A DNA stretch of 50,050 bases, taken from the NCBI GenBank assembly GCA_944323785.1, contig CALUTU010000017.1:1-50050 (forward strand), in the 5' to 3' direction. This stretch comes from an uncultured Bacteroidales bacterium (GTDB lineage: Bacteria; Bacteroidota; Bacteroidia; Bacteroidales; UBA932). Positions 40,991-49,963 of this stretch are shown here, piece by piece (within the stretch, counting starts at the first letter, position 1; each line of letters starts with the position of its first letter). The notes beneath the pieces were generated by a model. The model did no database searches. It was not told the DNA's origin and was given only the letters and a program-made list of their open reading frames with translations. The position numbers and the translations under genes were made by a program.

Positions 40991-43900
40991 ATGCTTAAAA
41001 AAGGAATATATGAACATATTATAAATCAAGAGACTGAGAAGCAGATAAATGATTCGGAGGAGGCTGGATTGGTGTGCCTGAAGCAGCCGGTTGATGATGC
41101 CGAATCTCCTCAGATTTTAGCCAATTATCTGGCAAAAGCTATATGCCAGAAGTTGGAAGACACTGAGGCACAGCAAGACCGTGTGAATCTCATCAATAGA
41201 ATTATGATTGACGCAGGGCTGATGGATGATAAACAAATTACTGCCCCTTCGGATCTGCTCGCAGAAGTGATGAGTCAGGAACAGGCCCTTATGCAGGCCG
41301 AAAGTAATTCAAAAACTGTTCGTCCTATTTCCGGATTCCGGGTCAGCAATCTTTTCACGGGTGGAAGCAGTACGATATCTCTAGGGGAGGAAATTCGCCG
41401 AGAGATTGCGAGCGCAGATGAATTGTGCTTTATCGTATCCTTCCTTAAAGTTTCTGGTGTTCGTATATTATTGGATGAATTAAATAAATTCTGCCGTCGG
41501 GAAGGTACACGTTTCCGCATCATAACCACCACATATTGCGGCGCTACTCAGGCCAAGGCAATTGAACAGTTGGCTGCACTTCCCAATACGGAGATACGTA
41601 TCTCCTACAACACTGATATTGAGCGCCTGCACGCCAAGTCATATATCTTTATCAGAAATTCTGGAATGCATACTGCATATATAGGCTCATCCAATCTGTC
41701 AAAGTCTGCACAGACTGAGGGCCTGGAGTGGAACATGCGTGTGACGAGTTTTGAGAATCCGCACATTATCAAAACGGCATTGGCCACATTTGAGATGTAT
41801 TGGAACAGTCCGAATTTTGAGGACTTCCGCATAGGCGGCATTGAGAAATTCAACAAAGAGATCCATCGCAATATTTTCCATTCAGAAGGTACTGAGTATG
41901 TCTATCAGCATTATACCCTGCTTCCGCACCAGAAACAGATTCTTGACAAACTGCGGGTCGAGAGAGAAGATAGAGGCAACTATAAGAACCTCATTGTAGC
42001 GGCAACTGGTACTGGTAAAACCGTAATATCTGCATTCGATTATCAGGCGTTCGTCAGGACTCATTCAAGAGCCCGGATTCTGTTCACGGCTCATCGCGAA
42101 GAGATTTTAAGGCAATCATTAAACACATACCGAAGCGTATTGCAGGATGCCAATTTCGGTACATTATGGGTTGGCGGCAGCAGCCCGCAGGATTCGACTG
42201 AGTATGAGCATCTTTTTGTCTCTATTTCGATGTTTAACTCTCGTTTTGAGGAGTTTTTCGCTCAATTGGAATCGGACTATTACGACTATATTGTTATCGA
42301 TGAGGCCCATCATAGTCAAGCTGACAGTTATCGGAAATTGTTCGGACACTTCGCGCCTCAGATTCTAATTGGTCTTACAGCGACGCCGGAACGCATGGAC
42401 GGACGCGACTTGCGCCCCGATTTCGGAGGACGTATCAGTGCTGAAATACGTCTGCCACAAGCTTTGCAAGCCGGACTGCTCACACCATTTCAGTACTTGT
42501 GCATATCCGATGACACGGATTTGAGCGATGACAGTTTGTGGAGCGGCCAGAAGTACAATATTGAGCGTTTGGCTGATAAACTTTGCGCCAAAAGTCGTGC
42601 AAAGCTGATCGTTGATGCCCTGCATAAATACTTAGCGGACGAGTACACATGCCGGGCATTGTGTTTCTGCGTAAATAAGCGCCATGCAGAGTTTATGGCT
42701 GAGCAACTTAAATTATATGGTCTTAACGCAGAGAGCCTTACCTCAGACACTCCGGCTGAAGAGAGAAAGCGGCTGGCAAATTCGCTGCGCGAAGGCACTC
42801 TGCACTATCTATGTGTAGTCGATATTTTTAATGAGGGTGTTGACATTCCGGAGGTTGATACCGTTCTTTTCCTGCGCCCTACTGAGAGTCTGACGATTTT
42901 CCTGCAACAGTTAGGCCGTGGTTTGCGTCTGTCTGTCGGTAAAACAGAGCTTACTGTGCTTGACTTTGTTGCTCAGGCAAACCGGAAGTACGACTTTGCA
43001 AGCCGTTTTAGAGCGCTTACTCTCCATCCTGAAAAGAATATACAGAAACAGATAAAAGAGGGCTTTACACTTTTGCCGCTGGGTTGCAGTATCGTGATGG
43101 AGAAAAAAGCACGGCAATATATTCTTGACAACATTACGAGCGCAATATACAACAAAACACGTATTGTCAGGGAGATAAACACATATACCTCTATTCCTAC
43201 AATATCTCAGTTCCTTGAAAACAACAACCAGGATATCAGAGTCCTATATCAAGGTACAAATTGCTGGTCATCGCTTAAACGCGCCGCTGGACGCATACAG
43301 TATGAAGACGATGCGGTTACAAAGCGTTTGGAAAAAGGAATGTCGAATTTACTTCATCATAATACCGTATCGTTCCTGCGGTTTGTGGAACGGTTCATCA
43401 AGGGTGAAGATAGTATAAGCTCCGAGCCAAATTACAACCAGTATGCACTGATTCTTTACTATGATTTATTCCAGGATCGCATCGGCAAGGCCGGCTTTAA
43501 ATCTATTGATGAGGCATTGGCATTGATTCATGAGCAACAATACTCTTGCTTCAAACAAGAGATAGGGGAAATCATATCATATTTATTGGCCAATCTGAAT
43601 ATTAAGACGACGCCTGTTGGGGACGATATAATTCCAGGATTGGAGTTATACGGTTGCTATACCCGCGAGGAAATCTTTACATTGGCAGGAAGGCAAACTG
43701 CCGACCGGAAAATGCAGGGTACCGCATCCGGTGTTTTTAACTTGCCTGAACACAATGCTACCATACTGTTCGTTACACTTAACAAATCAGAAAAAGACTT
43801 TTCGCCATCGACACAGTATAATGACTACCTGATCAATGAAGAATATTTCCATTGGCAATCGCAGAACACCGACTCCCACACGAATAACGGAGGCCGCCGC

Positions 43901-44095
43901 TATACAGAACAGTCTCGGACTAAGAACAAGATAATCCTCTTTGTCCGCGAAGAGAAAAAGGATGGTTTCGGCAACACATCACCATTCCACTGTTTCGGCC
44001 TGGTCGATTACGTCTCCTCACATGATGATTACCCGATGAATGTGACTTGGAGATTGCGGAAGCCGGCTATGTCGCAGTATCTTAAAGCTATTTAA
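40991..44095 (+). CDS. PLD-nuclease / SF2 helicase / DUF3427 protein
   Basis: A 1034-residue protein with three modules. An N-terminal helical part is followed by a phospholipase-D-like domain (about 115-290) with H214-A-K216 and S233-S-N235, a single HKD-type half-site. A superfamily 2 helicase core follows: Walker A A-T-G-T-G-K-T (338-344), D437-E-A-H, and motif VI Q-Q-L-G-R-G-L-R. The C-terminal third (about 690-1034) matches DUF3427, ending in a typical F-G-L-V-D-Y-V-S...P-M-N-V-T-W-R-L segment. The family resembles restriction-type helicase-nucleases, so DNA degradation during phage defence is plausible but not shown. The gene is convergent with the DUF262 gene (91-bp gap). No partner methylase is near. 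Confidence 0.88.
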   Translation: MLKKGIYEHIINQETEKQINDSEEAGLVCLKQPVDDAESPQILANYLAKAICQKLEDTEAQQDRVNLINRIMIDAGLMDDKQITAPSDLLAEVMSQEQALMQAESNSKTVRPISGFRVSNLFTGGSSTISLGEEIRREIASADELCFIVSFLKVSGVRILLDELNKFCRREGTRFRIITTTYCGATQAKAIEQLAALPNTEIRISYNTDIERLHAKSYIFIRNSGMHTAYIGSSNLSKSAQTEGLEWNMRVTSFENPHIIKTALATFEMYWNSPNFEDFRIGGIEKFNKEIHRNIFHSEGTEYVYQHYTLLPHQKQILDKLRVEREDRGNYKNLIVAATGTGKTVISAFDYQAFVRTHSRARILFTAHREEILRQSLNTYRSVLQDANFGTLWVGGSSPQDSTEYEHLFVSISMFNSRFEEFFAQLESDYYDYIVIDEAHHSQADSYRKLFGHFAPQILIGLTATPERMDGRDLRPDFGGRISAEIRLPQALQAGLLTPFQYLCISDDTDLSDDSLWSGQKYNIERLADKLCAKSRAKLIVDALHKYLADEYTCRALCFCVNKRHAEFMAEQLKLYGLNAESLTSDTPAEERKRLANSLREGTLHYLCVVDIFNEGVDIPEVDTVLFLRPTESLTIFLQQLGRGLRLSVGKTELTVLDFVAQANRKYDFASRFRALTLHPEKNIQKQIKEGFTLLPLGCSIVMEKKARQYILDNITSAIYNKTRIVREINTYTSIPTISQFLENNNQDIRVLYQGTNCWSSLKRAAGRIQYEDDAVTKRLEKGMSNLLHHNTVSFLRFVERFIKGEDSISSEPNYNQYALILYYDLFQDRIGKAGFKSIDEALALIHEQQYSCFKQEIGEIISYLLANLNIKTTPVGDDIIPGLELYGCYTREEIFTLAGRQTADRKMQGTASGVFNLPEHNATILFVTLNKSEKDFSPSTQYNDYLINEEYFHWQSQNTDSHTNNGGRRYTEQSRTKNKIILFVREEKKDGFGNTSPFHCFGLVDYVSSHDDYPMNVTWRLRKPAMSQYLKAI

Positions 44096-44186: not shown

Positions 44187-46007
44187 TTATAACAATTTTA
44201 CTCCAAACTCGCGCATCGTTTCTTCGCTATCTCTTCCCGATATTGATTTACCTGTCGCTTGTTCAATCCTATCAAGTAATTGTTTTGCACGATCAATGAA
44301 ATAAGCACCAAAATTATCTGTGGATAAATAAGCATAATTTACCTTGTGAGATTCTATTGCTTCTTGAATCTTTGCTTGGGCTAACCCTTTGTTTGCCATA
44401 GTTCCAATATAGACACTTGGTGCATGTCCACCTATCGAACGATTGGATGATGCATATATAGGCGTTTTATTGATAACTGAGTTCCATTTTATGCGAGAGA
44501 GGTTATTTTTCTCACAATAGGCCTGTGGAAATATATGATGAATATCGGCCTCCTCATCAATATACGATGCTATATCCATACGATTACCTGTCATAAAATC
44601 AAGAGGAGAATCTTGTAAAATTAGTGCCATTATACCTTTATACGCTGCACTATTTCTTGTCTGCATAGTTAATAAACGAGTCGGCTGAATGTTTGATCTA
44701 TATACTGTCTCTGGCATATCACCACCATCCATCCAACGGAAAACACCCACTATATCTGTAGCAAAACGCGCTTCATTGGCACCTCCATATAATTCTCCCA
44801 TTACTCCACACCAATACCAACGTGATAATAGACTTTGGTTTTTTCCAAGATGAAGCAATCTCTTATTTTCATTGTCATATGCAGAAATAGCTGCCAAAGG
44901 TATCAGTTGTGAGGAATATGGCAAATCTCTAGAACGAAATATGCCTTGATGCACCAAGAAATCAGCAGCATCGCAGAAACCTTTAACCAAAGCATCATGA
45001 TGTTTCAAATAATCCTGAAGTTCTAGTTTGAGGATATCTCTTTTCTTGCAGGTTACAGCCACTCGCTCATCATCGCCAGAAGCAACTCTTTTATAATATG
45101 AAACCAAAAGAGTCATCGCGGCTAATAAATTGGCACCAGTAATTTCTTTAAGTAGTTCACCGTTTACTTTTTGAGAAAATAAACTACGTATTGACTCCCA
45201 ATCTTTTCTTAATTCATGTCCGTCAGCTGCAAAAGTGGCAGTAACCAACTCGAAAACGGTCAAAGGAACTCCACCTGTATTTACGTTCTCAAAAATCTGA
45301 CAAACGGCTTCTTTGGGAGTTTCTTTATCCAGTTGAATTACAGGCATATTATAATCTAATATAGGACGAAGGATTTTCTGGGAGAAGTCACGAAACAAAT
45401 TTCTATAGTCTTTATCACCATGATAATAGTCTTCCATATCATAATGCCAATCCTCTGTATCATTATGGGAAAAAGTAATATTAAGAGGGAACATCAAATT
45501 CTCAAATTCTTTTTCTCTGGTAGATAAGTCTAGTGTTACAGTACGTCCTATATCTGTAGTTAGTTGTTTTTTCTCATATACAGAAATAATGGCATCTAAT
45601 CTATCAGCGGTAGGATCAAGACATTTTCGTATATCTAGATAGTAATAACGTTTGATTGTCGTATCACGGTTTGTCTCTAATCTAGTATTAGTCGCTTTTT
45701 TACTTTTTAAAACTTGATATAAAGTGGTCAACCTCTGTTGTCCATCAAGCACAAGCCATTCAGGAGTAACCTGAGATATCGGGTCTACTCCATCAAACAT
45801 ACGATATTTAAAACGTATATGATCACCTCCATTCGCTAGGAACATTGCTGCACCCATCGGGAAACCTGAGGTGATGCTCTCTATGAGTTTACAGATTTTC
45901 GTATCGTCCCAAACCCAGCTACGCTGAAAATCTGGTAATTGAGCCTTGCCTTCTTCGACCATTTTTAAAAGGTCATCGAGTTTTTTATCGTGTGACTCTA
46001 CTGCCAT
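44187..46007 (-). CDS. DUF262 + HNH (DUF1524-like) protein, GmrSD-like
   Basis: A 606-residue protein. The DUF262 (ParB/Srx-like NTPase) domain has Q-L-P-D-F-Q-R-S-W-V-W (23-33), the G-F-P-M-G segment (48-52) and D88-G-Q-Q-R-L-T-T. A C-terminal HNH-type nuclease segment contains I-H490-H491-I-F-P followed by N-K-T-P-I. This is the GmrS and GmrD arrangement of type IV restriction of modified phage DNA, fused in one chain; single-chain relatives occur widely in bacterial defence loci. It follows HsdR-S24 by 32 bp on the same strand, so the two are probably co-transcribed. Modified-DNA restriction is inferred from family, not visible. Confidence 0.88.
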   Translation of the reverse strand: MAVESHDKKLDDLLKMVEEGKAQLPDFQRSWVWDDTKICKLIESITSGFPMGAAMFLANGGDHIRFKYRMFDGVDPISQVTPEWLVLDGQQRLTTLYQVLKSKKATNTRLETNRDTTIKRYYYLDIRKCLDPTADRLDAIISVYEKKQLTTDIGRTVTLDLSTREKEFENLMFPLNITFSHNDTEDWHYDMEDYYHGDKDYRNLFRDFSQKILRPILDYNMPVIQLDKETPKEAVCQIFENVNTGGVPLTVFELVTATFAADGHELRKDWESIRSLFSQKVNGELLKEITGANLLAAMTLLVSYYKRVASGDDERVAVTCKKRDILKLELQDYLKHHDALVKGFCDAADFLVHQGIFRSRDLPYSSQLIPLAAISAYDNENKRLLHLGKNQSLLSRWYWCGVMGELYGGANEARFATDIVGVFRWMDGGDMPETVYRSNIQPTRLLTMQTRNSAAYKGIMALILQDSPLDFMTGNRMDIASYIDEEADIHHIFPQAYCEKNNLSRIKWNSVINKTPIYASSNRSIGGHAPSVYIGTMANKGLAQAKIQEAIESHKVNYAYLSTDNFGAYFIDRAKQLLDRIEQATGKSISGRDSEETMREFGVKLL

Positions 46008-46039: not shown

Positions 46040-49000
46040 TTACTTTCTTATCACCATCTTTAACACCCCTAAAACCTTAAATGATTCTTCTGGGTCAAGG
46101 ATAACTGTTTTATATTCTTTATTTAGAGGAATTAATTCAATGAGTGAGTGCTCCCAACCATCTTCCGTAGCACGTTTCTCACTATGATATTTTTTGATGG
46201 TACAAGCTATATTGTCGCTATCATAGTCCTTTATATTATAACCTTCCACCAGTACGATTTCACCTTCGCGACTACCACCTGTATAGCGTGCAAAAACACA
46301 GTAATCTCCATTATTTATTTTTGGTTGCATACTATCACCCATTGCACGAACCACAAACATTGATTCATCTAAATGTGACATTTCCGCAGATACATCTATC
46401 CATTGTGCTTCTTCGTACGGCACCCCAATTTCAGATAAATCGTGACAAGCGGCTTTAATGCTCGGATAGAATGGCAAATGTGTTACGAAACGTTGTGTAT
46501 CAGATACCTCATCAATGATTCGCGATGAAATAGTAAGATTAGAATTTTCGTCTTCATTCTCAGTCGAATCCTTTGTTTCATGATATACGTCATTCTCATT
46601 AAAGTTCTCCACTTGTTCCATTACCTGACGAAATACTTCCGGACTATATTGTGGCGGATAACCATTCTTTACCAAACATACTTTAATGTCAAACTTCAAT
46701 TGGTTACGAACATTCTGATTGTTCAACCAATCGGCAACACTCGATTTCAGATCAATTATCTCTTTAATCTTACGCGCTAAATCTCTGCACTTCTCATTAA
46801 TCCTAATCCCATCTATCTCTTTCTCTTCACCATATACAAAATTAAATTGATCGCGTAGCAGGATTAAAATATCATAAAATGCCTTTTCTTCAAAAGTAAG
46901 ATTCAGTTTTCGGAAGCTTTCCCTATCTTTCTGCATTTCTTGAAGAATCTGTAAAGCTTGTTCAGTTGCACTCTTTATGATTTCTTCTGATGTTGCATCT
47001 TGAGCTTCACCAGCTTCCTCTGCACTTAAATGTTTTCTACGTTCATGATATTGTTTAATGGTTTCTTCCAGCATTTCCATAAACCGTTTGGCAGCTGCTC
47101 CATTAGTCCGACCATACTCTGTTATCTGCTTCTTGAGCATTTTAACCAGCAATTCCAATTTGGAAGCAGGCATCTTTACATCAGATAGCTTTTCAAAGTA
47201 TTCCGGACTAAATATATCCTCCTCTTCTCCTATTTCCAAAACGCTTTCGACCTTGGTATATTTTAATGCCTCTTCCACCATCTTAGCCACCTTTCGATTC
47301 ATGGTTTCTGCATCAGGCACATCCGTTCCACTCATTTTACGCACAAAACCAGCTATCGCCATAAAGCATTGCGCTAAAGCAGATTCTTCTTCACTCAAAT
47401 ATCCTGATGGCTGGCATATGTCGTATGCTATACGCATCCGCTTAACCACCTTCAAGAAGTATGTTTTAAAAGATACTTTCTTTACTTTCTTACCATCATC
47501 AGAGGCTAAGTTTAACTGATCGTTTGACTTGAAAACATACTCTGCTACTTTGGCTAATAGTGTATATCTCAGTGCCGGATCTGTATCTGGATTAAGGAAT
47601 GGCGTTAAATCCTCTTTCTTGAATAAATCTTTCAGTATTGATAACTGCTCCCTGAATATCAATGTTGCCTGTTCTACATCGTCATCAGTCGGTGCAAATG
47701 TATTACCACCACCGCCATATATTTTCATAGCTTCACGCATATTGTCGCGTATGCCGATATAGTCAATGACAAGGCCGAATTCCTTTTGTGGATATTTTCT
47801 GTTTACACGGCTGATAGTTTGGATAAGCGTGTGTTTTTGTAATGGTTTATCATTATATAGATAGGTTAAAGACTCTACGTCAAAACCTGTAATCCACATA
47901 TCCACAACAATCACAATGCGGAAATTACTCTTCTCTTGTTTAAATGCAGCGTCTAAGTCTTCAGAACGTTTGTCATTCGTTACTCCTCCTAAATATTCAT
48001 ACATATCTTTAGGGTCGTTCTTACCCACACTGGCGACCATTGCCATAGTAGGCATTTCAGGCAGTTCTTTTAGCTCTTCTTCCGTACACACAACACCTTC
48101 GGGCGATTTCCTTAATTCAAACCATTCCGGGTATTTCTCTTGGAAAACAGTAAGTAGTTTGTATGCAATTTCACGTTTAGAGCATACCACCATTGCTTTT
48201 TGCACTCGGTCTGGATCACCATTACATGCATTTATGTAATGGTCGTGTATATCCACAGCTAAACGTTCCAATCTTTGTGGTTCACCAAGAATCACTTGTA
48301 ATGAACTCATAGCTATCTTACTGGCTTCTATATCTTCTTTAGTGGAACCATCTTCAGCACAGCGTTTATAATATTCCTCTACTAACTGGATTTTTTCTTT
48401 ATCTAAAAGAACTTTTGTAATCCGAGGGTGGTATTTGATTGGCACAGTTATCTCATCAGCAACCGCTTGATCCATGGTATATCTGTCAATCTCATCACCA
48501 AACGTTTGATAGGTTTCTGCAATGGGAGTACCGGTAAATCCTACAAATGTAGCATGTGGTAAAGCTTCACGAAGCACCTTTGCGTATGGTTTGGATAACA
48601 CAGCTCTCATTTGTTCATCATTACTTGCTGCTAACTCTATTTCATCTTCATTCGGCTTACTGAATTTGATACGTTTAGCACTTTCCAACTGAGTACGATG
48701 TGCTTCATCGCTAAAGCAGATGATGTTAGAGCGTTTGTTAATGAGTCCCACCGGGTCATCTTCACGGTCACAAAATTTCTGTATCGTACAAATATAAAAT
48801 CCCCCGCTTTCTCGTGCAGCCAGTTCTTCACGCAGTTTTTTGCGTGTAGGTACCACAGACACCTCACCTAATCCGAGGAACTCTTTACTCTTGGTAAATA
48901 ACTTGCTACCCTGTTTCTGCAAGTCATCTCGATCTACTATCATCAAGATGGTTGGCGAACCAATTTCCGATGCACATCGCATAGAAAGTTGACGTGCAAG

Positions 49001-49963
49001 AAAAGCCATTGTGTAGGTCTTCCCACATCCGGTAGCTCCAAAATATGTACCTCCTTTTCCACTTTTCTCCTTCACAGATTTCACGATACTTTCACGAAGC
49101 AGCCGTGTGGCAAAGAATTGAGGATAACGGCATACTATTTCTTTCTCCTTATCATCATATTCCTTGTCCTGAAAATAAATGTAGTCTCGGAATATTTCAA
49201 GGAATCTTTCTGGAGAATAGACTCCTTTCACCATGGTCAGCATCTCATCAAATGGGGATGTAGATACTTGATCATCGTTGTTCACTCTACGCCAAGCATA
49301 AAAATGTTCGTATGGAGTACGCACTGTTCCAAGACGTGTTTTTACACCATCACTTATACATGCTAATGGACAATAATGAAGCAAGTGTGGGATATCACGC
49401 CAGTAGCGAATATTTATCTGTTCCCAAGCATCAAATATGGTCGCTTTATCGTCTGCTGGATTTTTCAGTTCCATCACACAGAGCGGCATTCCATTTACAT
49501 ATAAAATAATATCTGGACGTCTATTCTTTGTGCGACCATTATTTACATACTCAACTGAAAATTGATTGACTACTCGGAATATGTTTTTAGCTGATTGGTC
49601 TTCCTTAGGTTTATCAAAATCAATAATAGGTATGTTTCGTGTTGTACCGTTTTTAGATGTAAAGTTTACACCTTCAACCATCCATCCATAAACTTTATGG
49701 AGGGTTGCAAAGTCTGTTTCTGCACCAACAAGTCGTACATTATCAACAATCTGTTGAATCTCATCCGCTTCAAGTCCCGTGTTGCTATTTGTCAAAAAGT
49801 CTATTAAGTCCTTCTCAATCAGAACTTCCTTTTTATTGGCTCGTACAATTTCATCACCTGATATATATGTCCAGCCCTCTTGTTCCAAGAATGAAATAAA
49901 TGCATTCTCAAAATCAGATTCGCAAAAGCGACCGTTATAATTTATTAGTTTACTTTTTGACAT
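46040..49963 (-). CDS. hsdR: Type I restriction HsdR fused to a LexA-like S24 peptidase domain
   Basis: A 1307-residue protein. The N-terminal nuclease has R-P-D151...E165-L-K167 (PD-(D/E)xK). The motor core has Walker A G309-A-T-G-C-G-K-T, D419-E-A-H and the I-S-R-V-N-R-K-Y-P motif VI region. A helical region (about 830-1120) is typical of HsdR. Residues 1155-1307 add an S24/LexA-like domain: F-V-V-R-A-M-G-D-S1211-M-Q-P (nucleophile), G-E-I-V-L-V-E-G, I-K1257-K (candidate general base) and I-E-L-I-P-L-N. The Ala-Gly bond of self-cleaving repressors corresponds to A-A-C-H near 1171-1174, so the glycine is absent. Ordinary HsdR ends before this domain. No HsdM or HsdS is in the window; upstream DNA past 49963 runs off the edge. 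Confidence 0.88.
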   Translation of the reverse strand: MSKSKLINYNGRFCESDFENAFISFLEQEGWTYISGDEIVRANKKEVLIEKDLIDFLTNSNTGLEADEIQQIVDNVRLVGAETDFATLHKVYGWMVEGVNFTSKNGTTRNIPIIDFDKPKEDQSAKNIFRVVNQFSVEYVNNGRTKNRRPDIILYVNGMPLCVMELKNPADDKATIFDAWEQINIRYWRDIPHLLHYCPLACISDGVKTRLGTVRTPYEHFYAWRRVNNDDQVSTSPFDEMLTMVKGVYSPERFLEIFRDYIYFQDKEYDDKEKEIVCRYPQFFATRLLRESIVKSVKEKSGKGGTYFGATGCGKTYTMAFLARQLSMRCASEIGSPTILMIVDRDDLQKQGSKLFTKSKEFLGLGEVSVVPTRKKLREELAARESGGFYICTIQKFCDREDDPVGLINKRSNIICFSDEAHRTQLESAKRIKFSKPNEDEIELAASNDEQMRAVLSKPYAKVLREALPHATFVGFTGTPIAETYQTFGDEIDRYTMDQAVADEITVPIKYHPRITKVLLDKEKIQLVEEYYKRCAEDGSTKEDIEASKIAMSSLQVILGEPQRLERLAVDIHDHYINACNGDPDRVQKAMVVCSKREIAYKLLTVFQEKYPEWFELRKSPEGVVCTEEELKELPEMPTMAMVASVGKNDPKDMYEYLGGVTNDKRSEDLDAAFKQEKSNFRIVIVVDMWITGFDVESLTYLYNDKPLQKHTLIQTISRVNRKYPQKEFGLVIDYIGIRDNMREAMKIYGGGGNTFAPTDDDVEQATLIFREQLSILKDLFKKEDLTPFLNPDTDPALRYTLLAKVAEYVFKSNDQLNLASDDGKKVKKVSFKTYFLKVVKRMRIAYDICQPSGYLSEEESALAQCFMAIAGFVRKMSGTDVPDAETMNRKVAKMVEEALKYTKVESVLEIGEEEDIFSPEYFEKLSDVKMPASKLELLVKMLKKQITEYGRTNGAAAKRFMEMLEETIKQYHERRKHLSAEEAGEAQDATSEEIIKSATEQALQILQEMQKDRESFRKLNLTFEEKAFYDILILLRDQFNFVYGEEKEIDGIRINEKCRDLARKIKEIIDLKSSVADWLNNQNVRNQLKFDIKVCLVKNGYPPQYSPEVFRQVMEQVENFNENDVYHETKDSTENEDENSNLTISSRIIDEVSDTQRFVTHLPFYPSIKAACHDLSEIGVPYEEAQWIDVSAEMSHLDESMFVVRAMGDSMQPKINNGDYCVFARYTGGSREGEIVLVEGYNIKDYDSDNIACTIKKYHSEKRATEDGWEHSLIELIPLNKEYKTVILDPEESFKVLGVLKMVIRK

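What the first reader, a model, noticed from the sequence alone, without database searches (positions are those of the whole stretch)
46040..49963. HsdR with a C-terminal LexA/S24 peptidase domain
About 150 residues after the normal HsdR end match the self-cleaving S24 peptidase fold with a G-D-S-M serine and a downstream I-K-K lysine. Such a domain could let DNA damage, RecA filament formation or another trigger switch restriction on or off by proteolysis. It may be a recurrent but little-studied architecture in Bacteroidota.
Basis: partly seen in the sequence, partly recalled or inferred. Interest (0 to 1): 0.82.

Follow-up and report, generated by a model that had tools for sequence, protein, structure and literature searches.

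The report
Restriction enzyme with LexA-like regulatory tail
A DNA-cutting bacterial defence enzyme carries at its end a copy of the switch domain that bacteria use to sense DNA damage; the same switch is grafted onto several unrelated defence enzymes, which suggests a built-in safety brake, although in this enzyme the usual self-cutting point is altered.

Summary
ORF 46040-49963 (-) is a full type I HsdR (nuclease and motor motifs intact) followed by a linker and a LexA/UmuD-type S24 domain (PF00717 E=4e-10; Ser1211, Lys1257; predicted fold matches LexA, UmuD, CI). The domain belongs to a distinct S24 subfamily found as a C-terminal tail on unrelated defence helicases: Schlafen-group-3, DUF3427/PLD, type III Res-like, and a second HsdR family (21-24% identical). 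The two HsdR fusions look separate (AU p=0.0046). Ser and Lys are invariant in 49 of 49 tails examined; the scissile Gly is kept in 45 of 49. Both known members of this HsdR lineage have His there (KAAC-HD), and residues 1121-1209 hold no Ala-Gly or Cys-Gly. Canonical LexA-style self-cleavage of this protein is therefore doubtful, yet the segment is 18/19 identical between two sequences with near-saturated silent sites, so it is under selection. Best reading: a cis-acting, RecA-responsive brake on restriction helicases (built-in restriction alleviation), here with a non-canonical or lost scissile bond. No description was found in the library searched. Trigger and direction are untested.

The parts
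46040..49963 (-). hsdR-S24 gene, 1307 aa type I restriction endonuclease subunit with C-terminal S24 tail
49307..49921 (-). HSDR_N nuclease domain, residues 15-219 (PD-ExK segment RPDIILYVNGMPLCVMELKNP at 149-169)
48350..49093 (-). SF2 motor, SWI2_SNF2 residues 291-538 (GATGCGKT 309-316, DEAHR 419-423, GFTGTP 475-480)
47759..47971 (-). T1R_D3-like motor part, residues 665-735 (QTISRVNR at 715-722 lies in it)
46595..47683 (-). T1RH-like_C helical C-terminal region of ordinary HsdR, residues 761-1123; 47 of 81 HsdR compared end within 20 residues of 1124
46484..46594 (-). linker, residues 1124-1160; the stretch 1121-1160 is 47% identical to L004
46043..46483 (-). S24 (LexA/UmuD-like) domain, residues 1161-1307
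46418..46474 (-). cleavage-site segment, residues 1164-1182 PFYPSIKAACHDLSEIGVP; 18 of 19 residues as in L004
46442..46447 (-). Cys1173-His1174, the place of the S24 scissile bond; His where 45 of 49 tails have Gly
46331..46333 (-). catalytic Ser1211
   Evidence: 49 of 49 tails
46193..46195 (-). catalytic Lys1257
   Evidence: 49 of 49 tails
44187..46007 (-). same-strand neighbour, begins 32 bases after hsdR: DUF262/GmrSD_N protein with a C-terminal HNH match below cut-off, probably the same operon
40991..44095 (+). convergent PLD + helicase + DUF3427 protein (PADLOC mREase_IV); this one has no S24 tail although DUF3427 relatives elsewhere do

Best explanation
The protein is the motor-nuclease subunit of a type I restriction system with a LexA/UmuD-type S24 domain added at its C-terminus. 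The S24 tail is an exchangeable regulatory module used on several unrelated defence helicases. Proposed mechanism: when the effector, or another insult, creates single-stranded host DNA, a RecA filament binds the tail and triggers the S24 centre. In most tails this would cut the conserved Ala/Cys-Gly bond, remove the tail and leave an effector ending in -VAA, -AAA or -AAC, like the ClpXP degron exposed when LexA is cut, so that the effector is destroyed: restriction alleviation built in cis. In the window's lineage Gly is replaced by His, so I expect a variant: slow or non-canonical cleavage (Ala1172-Cys1173 or Cys1173-His1174), or RecA/partner binding that restrains the motor without cutting. 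Shown: domain identity, dyad, recurrence, separate fusions, purifying selection, loss of the scissile Gly, presence of recA and clpX. Inferred: RecA as trigger, off rather than on, ClpXP as executor.
For: S24 tails of one subfamily lie on SLFN-g3, DUF3427, Res-like and two HsdR families; of the 49 tails in the set, 46 sit on these helicases or nucleases, 2 (L147, L148) on parts that match no Pfam family and 1 (L124) is truncated. Dyad 49 of 49, scissile Gly 45 of 49, P1 Ala or Cys 49 of 49, P2 Ala 47 of 49; 4 further complete tails also have AACG or VAAG. Fusion to two HsdR lineages that are not one clade in the tail tree (AU p=0.0046). Selection: pS 0.74 in the core and 0.77 in the tail, while pN is 0.107 in the tail and 0.023 in the site segment. 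recA and clpX present. Close HsdR relatives without the tail (L005, L006 at 84%; L169 at 80%) show that the tail is an add-on. Literature passages: LexA-like autocleavage exposes an embedded ClpXP C-degron (PMC7101444; PMC5742171; that it ends in -VAA in LexA is recalled); type I systems are suppressed after DNA damage, through ClpXP for types IA/IB, while type IC EcoR124I shows alleviation without ClpXP (PMC3874165). The nearest solved HsdR by sequence is EcoR124 HsdR.
Against: No A-G or C-G in residues 1121-1209, so the best known step, autocleavage, may not occur here. The residues before the bond are also part of the ordinary S24 recognition motif, so their conservation does not prove a degron. 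EcoKI alleviation by plasmids in E. coli does not need LexA cleavage or the SOS response (PMC11109961). Direction is undetermined: an HsdR cut free of its tail resembles ordinary active HsdR. No feature specific for RecA contact was tested. Only two sequences of this HsdR-S24 lineage are known here.
Confidence: 0.4

Rival explanations
1. Non-catalytic tail: the S24 domain serves as a dimerisation or docking domain (for example with HsdM, RecA or another S24 protein) and no longer cuts anything in this lineage.
For: Scissile Gly lost in both members; no A-G/C-G in residues 1121-1209. The own genome (87% complete) shows no other S24 match at E<=0.01. That S24 domains of LexA/UmuD form dimers is recalled.
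Against: Ser and Lys are kept in both, and the site segment is almost unchanged over near-saturated silent divergence, which is not expected of a dead centre; 45 of 49 tails keep the full cleavage set.
Confidence: 0.27
2. On-switch (part of the first reader's proposal): damage- or infection-triggered self-cleavage removes an inhibitory S24 tail and releases an HsdR that looks like the ordinary active enzyme.
For: After removal of the tail the protein would match tail-less relatives L005 and L006. UmuD is activated by such a cut (PMC8565304 passage).
Against: A type I enzyme switched on while host DNA is damaged would attack unmodified repair products; known type I control goes the other way (PMC3874165 passages). 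The scissile Gly is missing here.
Confidence: 0.13
3. Phage-sensing tail: the domain is borrowed from phage repressors and responds to phage anti-repressors or RecA inhibitors, so that the effector is armed or released during infection.
For: The predicted fold also matches many phage CI-type repressors; the tails sit on helicases with matches to defence-system profiles.
Against: The tail subfamily is far from CI or UmuD by sequence (complete tails at 84 bits or more, the UmuD/CI-like proteins at 31 or less with its profile); no phage partner is known; only 2 phage records match the window tail, distantly, and none matches the L150 tail.
Confidence: 0.08
4. RecA-independent instability device, as for IrvR: constitutive slow S24 cleavage and degradation keep HsdR low, so restriction falls whenever synthesis stops.
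For: IrvR precedent (PMC7101444 passages); the window's altered site could give slow constitutive cutting.
Against: No data on turnover; IrvR keeps the Ala-Gly bond.
Confidence: 0.1

Closest known systems
Type I restriction subunit HsdR (EcoR124-like; TIGR00348, PADLOC PDLC03040)
   Same: HSDR_N nuclease, SF2 motor and T1RH-like C-terminal region all present; hsdM and hsdS upstream in L004
   Different: About 183 extra residues after residue 1124, ending in an S24 domain; RhuM gene between hsdS and hsdR in L004
UmuD / LexA / CI S24 regulators (PF00717)
   Same: Ser-Lys dyad, fold, cleavage-site segment before the Ser
   Different: Attached to the C-terminus of a restriction motor of about 1120 residues instead of a DNA-binding domain or a short arm; scissile Gly replaced by His in the window and L004
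Restriction alleviation of EcoKI by ClpXP (PMC4231737, PMC3874165, PMC11109961; passages seen)
   Same: Supposed outcome: HsdR is shut off to protect the host's own DNA
   Different: There a host protease acts on translocating HsdR and no degron was found; here a candidate switch is part of HsdR itself
S24 tails on other defence helicases (SLFN-g3, DUF3427/PLD, Res-like; found here)
   Same: Same S24 subfamily, same C-terminal placement, same dyad
   Different: 45 of 49 tails keep the scissile Gly; the effector parts are unrelated

Membership tests
S24 peptidase (LexA/UmuD/CI) | PF00717 profile match over curated cut-off | tested here: met
   39.7 bits against 23.3
S24 peptidase (LexA/UmuD/CI) | Ser-Lys catalytic dyad | tested here: met
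   S1211, K1257; 49 of 49 tails
S24 peptidase (LexA/UmuD/CI) | LexA-like fold | tested here: met
   AF2 pLDDT 83.3, pTM 0.80; the best 30 PDB matches are LexA, UmuD and CI. The alignment held 24 UmuD-like rows, so not independent; with 4 rows pLDDT was 38.9
S24 peptidase (LexA/UmuD/CI) | scissile Ala-Gly or Cys-Gly bond | tested here: not met
   Cys-His in the window and L004; no AG/CG in window residues 1121-1209. Gly kept in 45 of 49 tails
S24 peptidase (LexA/UmuD/CI) | RecA-stimulated autocleavage | not testable with these tools
   recA present
LexA / Bacteroidetes SOS repressor / UmuD | N-terminal HTH (LexA types) and whole-protein profile match (lexA, UmuD) | tested here: not met
   N-terminal part is HsdR; NCBIfam lexA 21.6 bits against 110.95 and UmuD PRK10276 27.3 against 110
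Type I restriction HsdR | PD-ExK nuclease and SF2 motor motifs | tested here: met
Type I restriction HsdR | hsdM and hsdS in the same locus | tested here: inconclusive
   contig ends 87 bases upstream of hsdR; no N6_Mtase hit in the 87%-complete genome. Met in the relative L004
S24-tailed defence helicases | C-terminal tail of the distinct S24 subfamily on a helicase or nuclease | tested here: met
   170.0 bits with the subfamily profile; the window is one of its 27 source rows
ClpXP restriction alleviation | HsdR degraded by ClpXP after damage | not testable with these tools
   clpX present

The most novel reading that the evidence does not exclude
Restriction helicases of many kinds share a plug-in S24 tail that makes their own by-product, the RecA filament, turn them off: restriction alleviation coded in cis. 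The window's HsdR lineage has changed the scissile bond to Cys-His (or Ala-Cys) under selection, giving an S24 centre with a new cleavage specificity or a non-cleaving RecA-sensing form.
Probability: 0.3. Interest if true: 0.85.

Novelty: new variant of a known kind. Interest (0 to 1): 0.62.

Why it matters
How cells keep restriction motors from destroying their own damaged chromosomes is an old question; the degron in EcoKI HsdR was sought and not found (PMC4231737), and type IC alleviation works without ClpXP (PMC3874165). A LexA-type switch fused to HsdR and to several unrelated defence helicases would be a direct, testable answer in these systems and would join DNA-damage sensing to immunity within one polypeptide. 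The missing scissile Gly with a kept dyad also tests how strict the S24 cleavage rule is.

Tried and rejected
Assembly artefact: rejected, since L004 in a second MAG has the same fusion. Decaying domain: not favoured, given purifying selection over near-saturated silent sites. One clade of both HsdR tails: rejected by AU test; the groups were set by effector before the tree was drawn, but the test was chosen after seeing it. Common feature of HsdR: rejected, 1 of 80 closest loci (one of the 80, L072, runs off its contig before the tail). Tail copies lying nearby for shuffling: none found by tblastn with 7 tails in the 80 loci and the window; the loci reach at most 10 kb either side. Structure with 4 sequences: useless, pLDDT 38.9. 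Viral scans for the tail or S24 relatives gave 1, 2, 0 and 0 loci. Plasmids: one record, Halomonas; phages: two records with the window tail, none with the L150 tail. The search around Gemmiger found nothing (0 of 299), which without a positive control shows little. PDB phmmer of the tail alone gave only weak UmuD/LexA hits (best E=0.0044). Papers on S24-restriction fusions: none found in the searches (open-licence PMC only; listings seen).
Full report
What is there. ORF 46040-49963 (-) encodes 1307 residues. Residues 13-1124 match a type I HsdR profile over nearly its whole length (PADLOC REase_I 2.6e-238; TIGR00348 2.1e-128 over 16-750; HSDR_N, SWI2_SNF2, T1R_D3-like and T1RH-like_C in Pfam). 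Nuclease and motor motifs are intact (motif names recalled). The nearest solved HsdR by sequence is EcoR124 HsdR (62 bits). Residues 1187-1300 match PF00717 at E=4.3e-10. Ser1211 and Lys1257 form the dyad.

Fold. With only four rows AlphaFold2 failed (pLDDT 38.9). With 28 rows (window, L004, L150, L149 and 24 UmuD-like domains chosen from the 80 viral loci; one further row dropped for a stop) it gave pLDDT 83.3 and pTM 0.80; the stretch around the cleavage site is among its less sure parts (blocks of 74 and 63). Foldseek's best 30 PDB matches are all LexA, UmuD or lambda CI (best E 8e-6), and most named viral matches at the top are CI or LexA-like repressors. The UmuD rows make this less than independent; the profile comparison of the tail family alone with UmuD proteins alone (probability 96.1, E 2.8e-9) does not have that fault.

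Who else has it. Of the 80 closest HsdR loci kept from 511 relatives, only L004 has an S24 tail (hmmsearch over all ORFs of 60 residues or more); L005 and L006, 84% identical, end at about 1126. The S24 domain itself is a frequent C-terminal tail elsewhere: 23 of 198 relatives' genomes at E<=0.001, UmuD-like hits included; 18 of 395 Bacteroidota (E<=1e-8); 20 of 348 of the window's family; 9 of 344 of its order; 4 of 398 in the phylum of G821, reached through an alphaproteobacterial locus; 0 of 299 in the phylum of G822, reached through a Gemmiger locus (the last four at E<=1e-12). The first four counts include the window's own genome, and these samples overlap. Effectors: Schlafen-group-3 helicases in two kinds, DUF3427/PLD helicases, type III Res-like proteins, a second HsdR family (L156, L157, L150), and two proteins without a known N-terminal family (L147, L148). 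With the tail profile (27 of these tails are its source rows) complete tails score 84 bits or more, while the UmuD and CI-like proteins found score 31 or less; a partial tail found later, L279, scores 51.

Separate fusions. The two HsdR families are 21-24% identical over the aligned part. In the S24 tree (48 tails and 4 UmuD; truncated L124 left out) their tails lie in different well-supported groups, and one common clade is rejected (p-AU 0.0046; the test was chosen after the tree was seen). Each family also has close members without a tail (L005, L006; L169 at 80% identity).

The catalytic set. The set holds 49 tails, one per protein, near-copies such as L112/L113 included, taken from the window and the loci. 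The Ser and the Lys are invariant, the residue before the bond is Ala or Cys in all, and the residue after it is Gly in 45, His in the window and L004, Ser in L158, Thr in L149. The four complete extra tails also have Gly; a fifth, L279, lacks that part. [quoted passage not shown] PMC7101444 (passages) calls Ala and Gly strictly conserved. In the window no A-G or C-G occurs in residues 1121-1209. The register is not quite sure: the profile comparison puts His1174 on the UmuD Gly, as does the alignment of the tails with the tail-family Gly, while one mixed alignment puts Cys1173 there, so Ala1172-Cys1173 is also possible. That a change of this Gly (G85D) blocks LexA cleavage is recalled; only lists an entry titled LexA G85D mutant.

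Selection. Between the window and L004 silent sites are near saturation (pS 0.739 in the core, 0.767 in the tail). pN is 0.072 in residues 1-1120 and 0.107 in the tail; residues 1121-1160 are only 47% identical; the segment 1164-1182 is 18/19 identical although 10 of its 19 codons differ silently. The altered site is being kept, not lost; this rests on two sequences.

Context. Downstream on the same strand, 32 bases away, is a DUF262/GmrSD_N protein; convergent to it is a DUF3427/PLD helicase without S24 tail. The contig ends 87 bases upstream of hsdR, so hsdM and hsdS are not seen, and no N6_Mtase was found in the genome. In L004 the order is hsdM, hsdS, RhuM, hsdR-S24. The genome has recA and clpX and no other S24 match at E<=0.01; it is 87% complete, so an SOS repressor could be missing.

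How it may work. LexA-like proteins expose a ClpXP degron next to the cleavage site when cut (PMC5742171 passages; PMC7101444 passages). Type I systems are suppressed after DNA damage; types IA/IB through ClpXP, EcoR124I (IC) without it (PMC3874165 passages); the HsdR degron of EcoKI was sought and not found (PMC4231737 passages). A tail that answers to RecA filaments, on proteins whose off-target action makes single-stranded host DNA, would be a negative feedback. This is inference. Against it: EcoKI alleviation by plasmids needs neither SOS nor LexA cleavage (PMC11109961 passages), the direction is open, and the window's own bond is not canonical. I give 0.4 to a RecA-responsive brake, 0.27 to a non-cutting docking role, 0.13 to an on-switch, 0.1 to RecA-independent turnover and 0.08 to phage sensing.

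Aside. The end of this HsdR clade looks like a place of tail exchange: of 81 sequences (80 loci and the window), 6 have tails of 183-185 residues beyond residue 1124, 4 of 94-110, 24 of 22-46, and 47 under 20, truncated L072 counted there. Genes with HsdR cores 92-99% identical in DNA per 300-base block (L038, L048) carry unrelated tails, with identity falling to about 0.5 from the core's end onward. The other two kinds of long tail (L027 and L031 tested) match no Pfam family at E<=5 and no PDB chain better than E=0.66.

Known or new. The searches listed no paper describing S24 fused to HsdR or to these helicases; term searches inside two recent defence surveys found no mention of LexA or S24 (PMC12839542, PMC10853773). 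The library holds open-licence papers only, so this is not proof. Parts are known; the combination and the altered bond appear new: a new variant of a known kind.

Noticed in passing
L027:13337-13882, L048, L031:13337-13882, L038: Nearly identical HsdR cores in Prevotellaceae and Paludibacteraceae carry two unrelated tails of about 182 aa (X and Y) with a sharp drop in identity at the core end: the HsdR C-terminus seems to be swapped by recombination. Both tails are unannotated.
   Followed up: partly
L049, L052, L053, L059: Shorter HsdR tails of 94-110 aa of another kind, also without a clear family.
   Followed up: partly
window 40991-44095 (+): PLD-helicase-DUF3427 protein next to hsdR lacks the S24 tail that DUF3427 relatives L158, L161 and L112 carry.
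   Followed up: partly
L004:8969-9979: RhuM-family gene between hsdS and hsdR; in L005 (7972-9972) a 666-aa protein with a weak MCU-like match sits just before hsdR.
   Followed up: no
L163:3919-5340 (same as L147) and L148: Two further S24-bearing proteins in one genome (G736) with unknown N-terminal domains; L147 continues past the S24 domain into a cysteine-rich end.
   Followed up: no
L149:2271-5453 and L158:716-4162: Two other tails that also lack the scissile Gly (AVAT and AAAS), so loss of the Gly may have happened more than once.
   Followed up: partly
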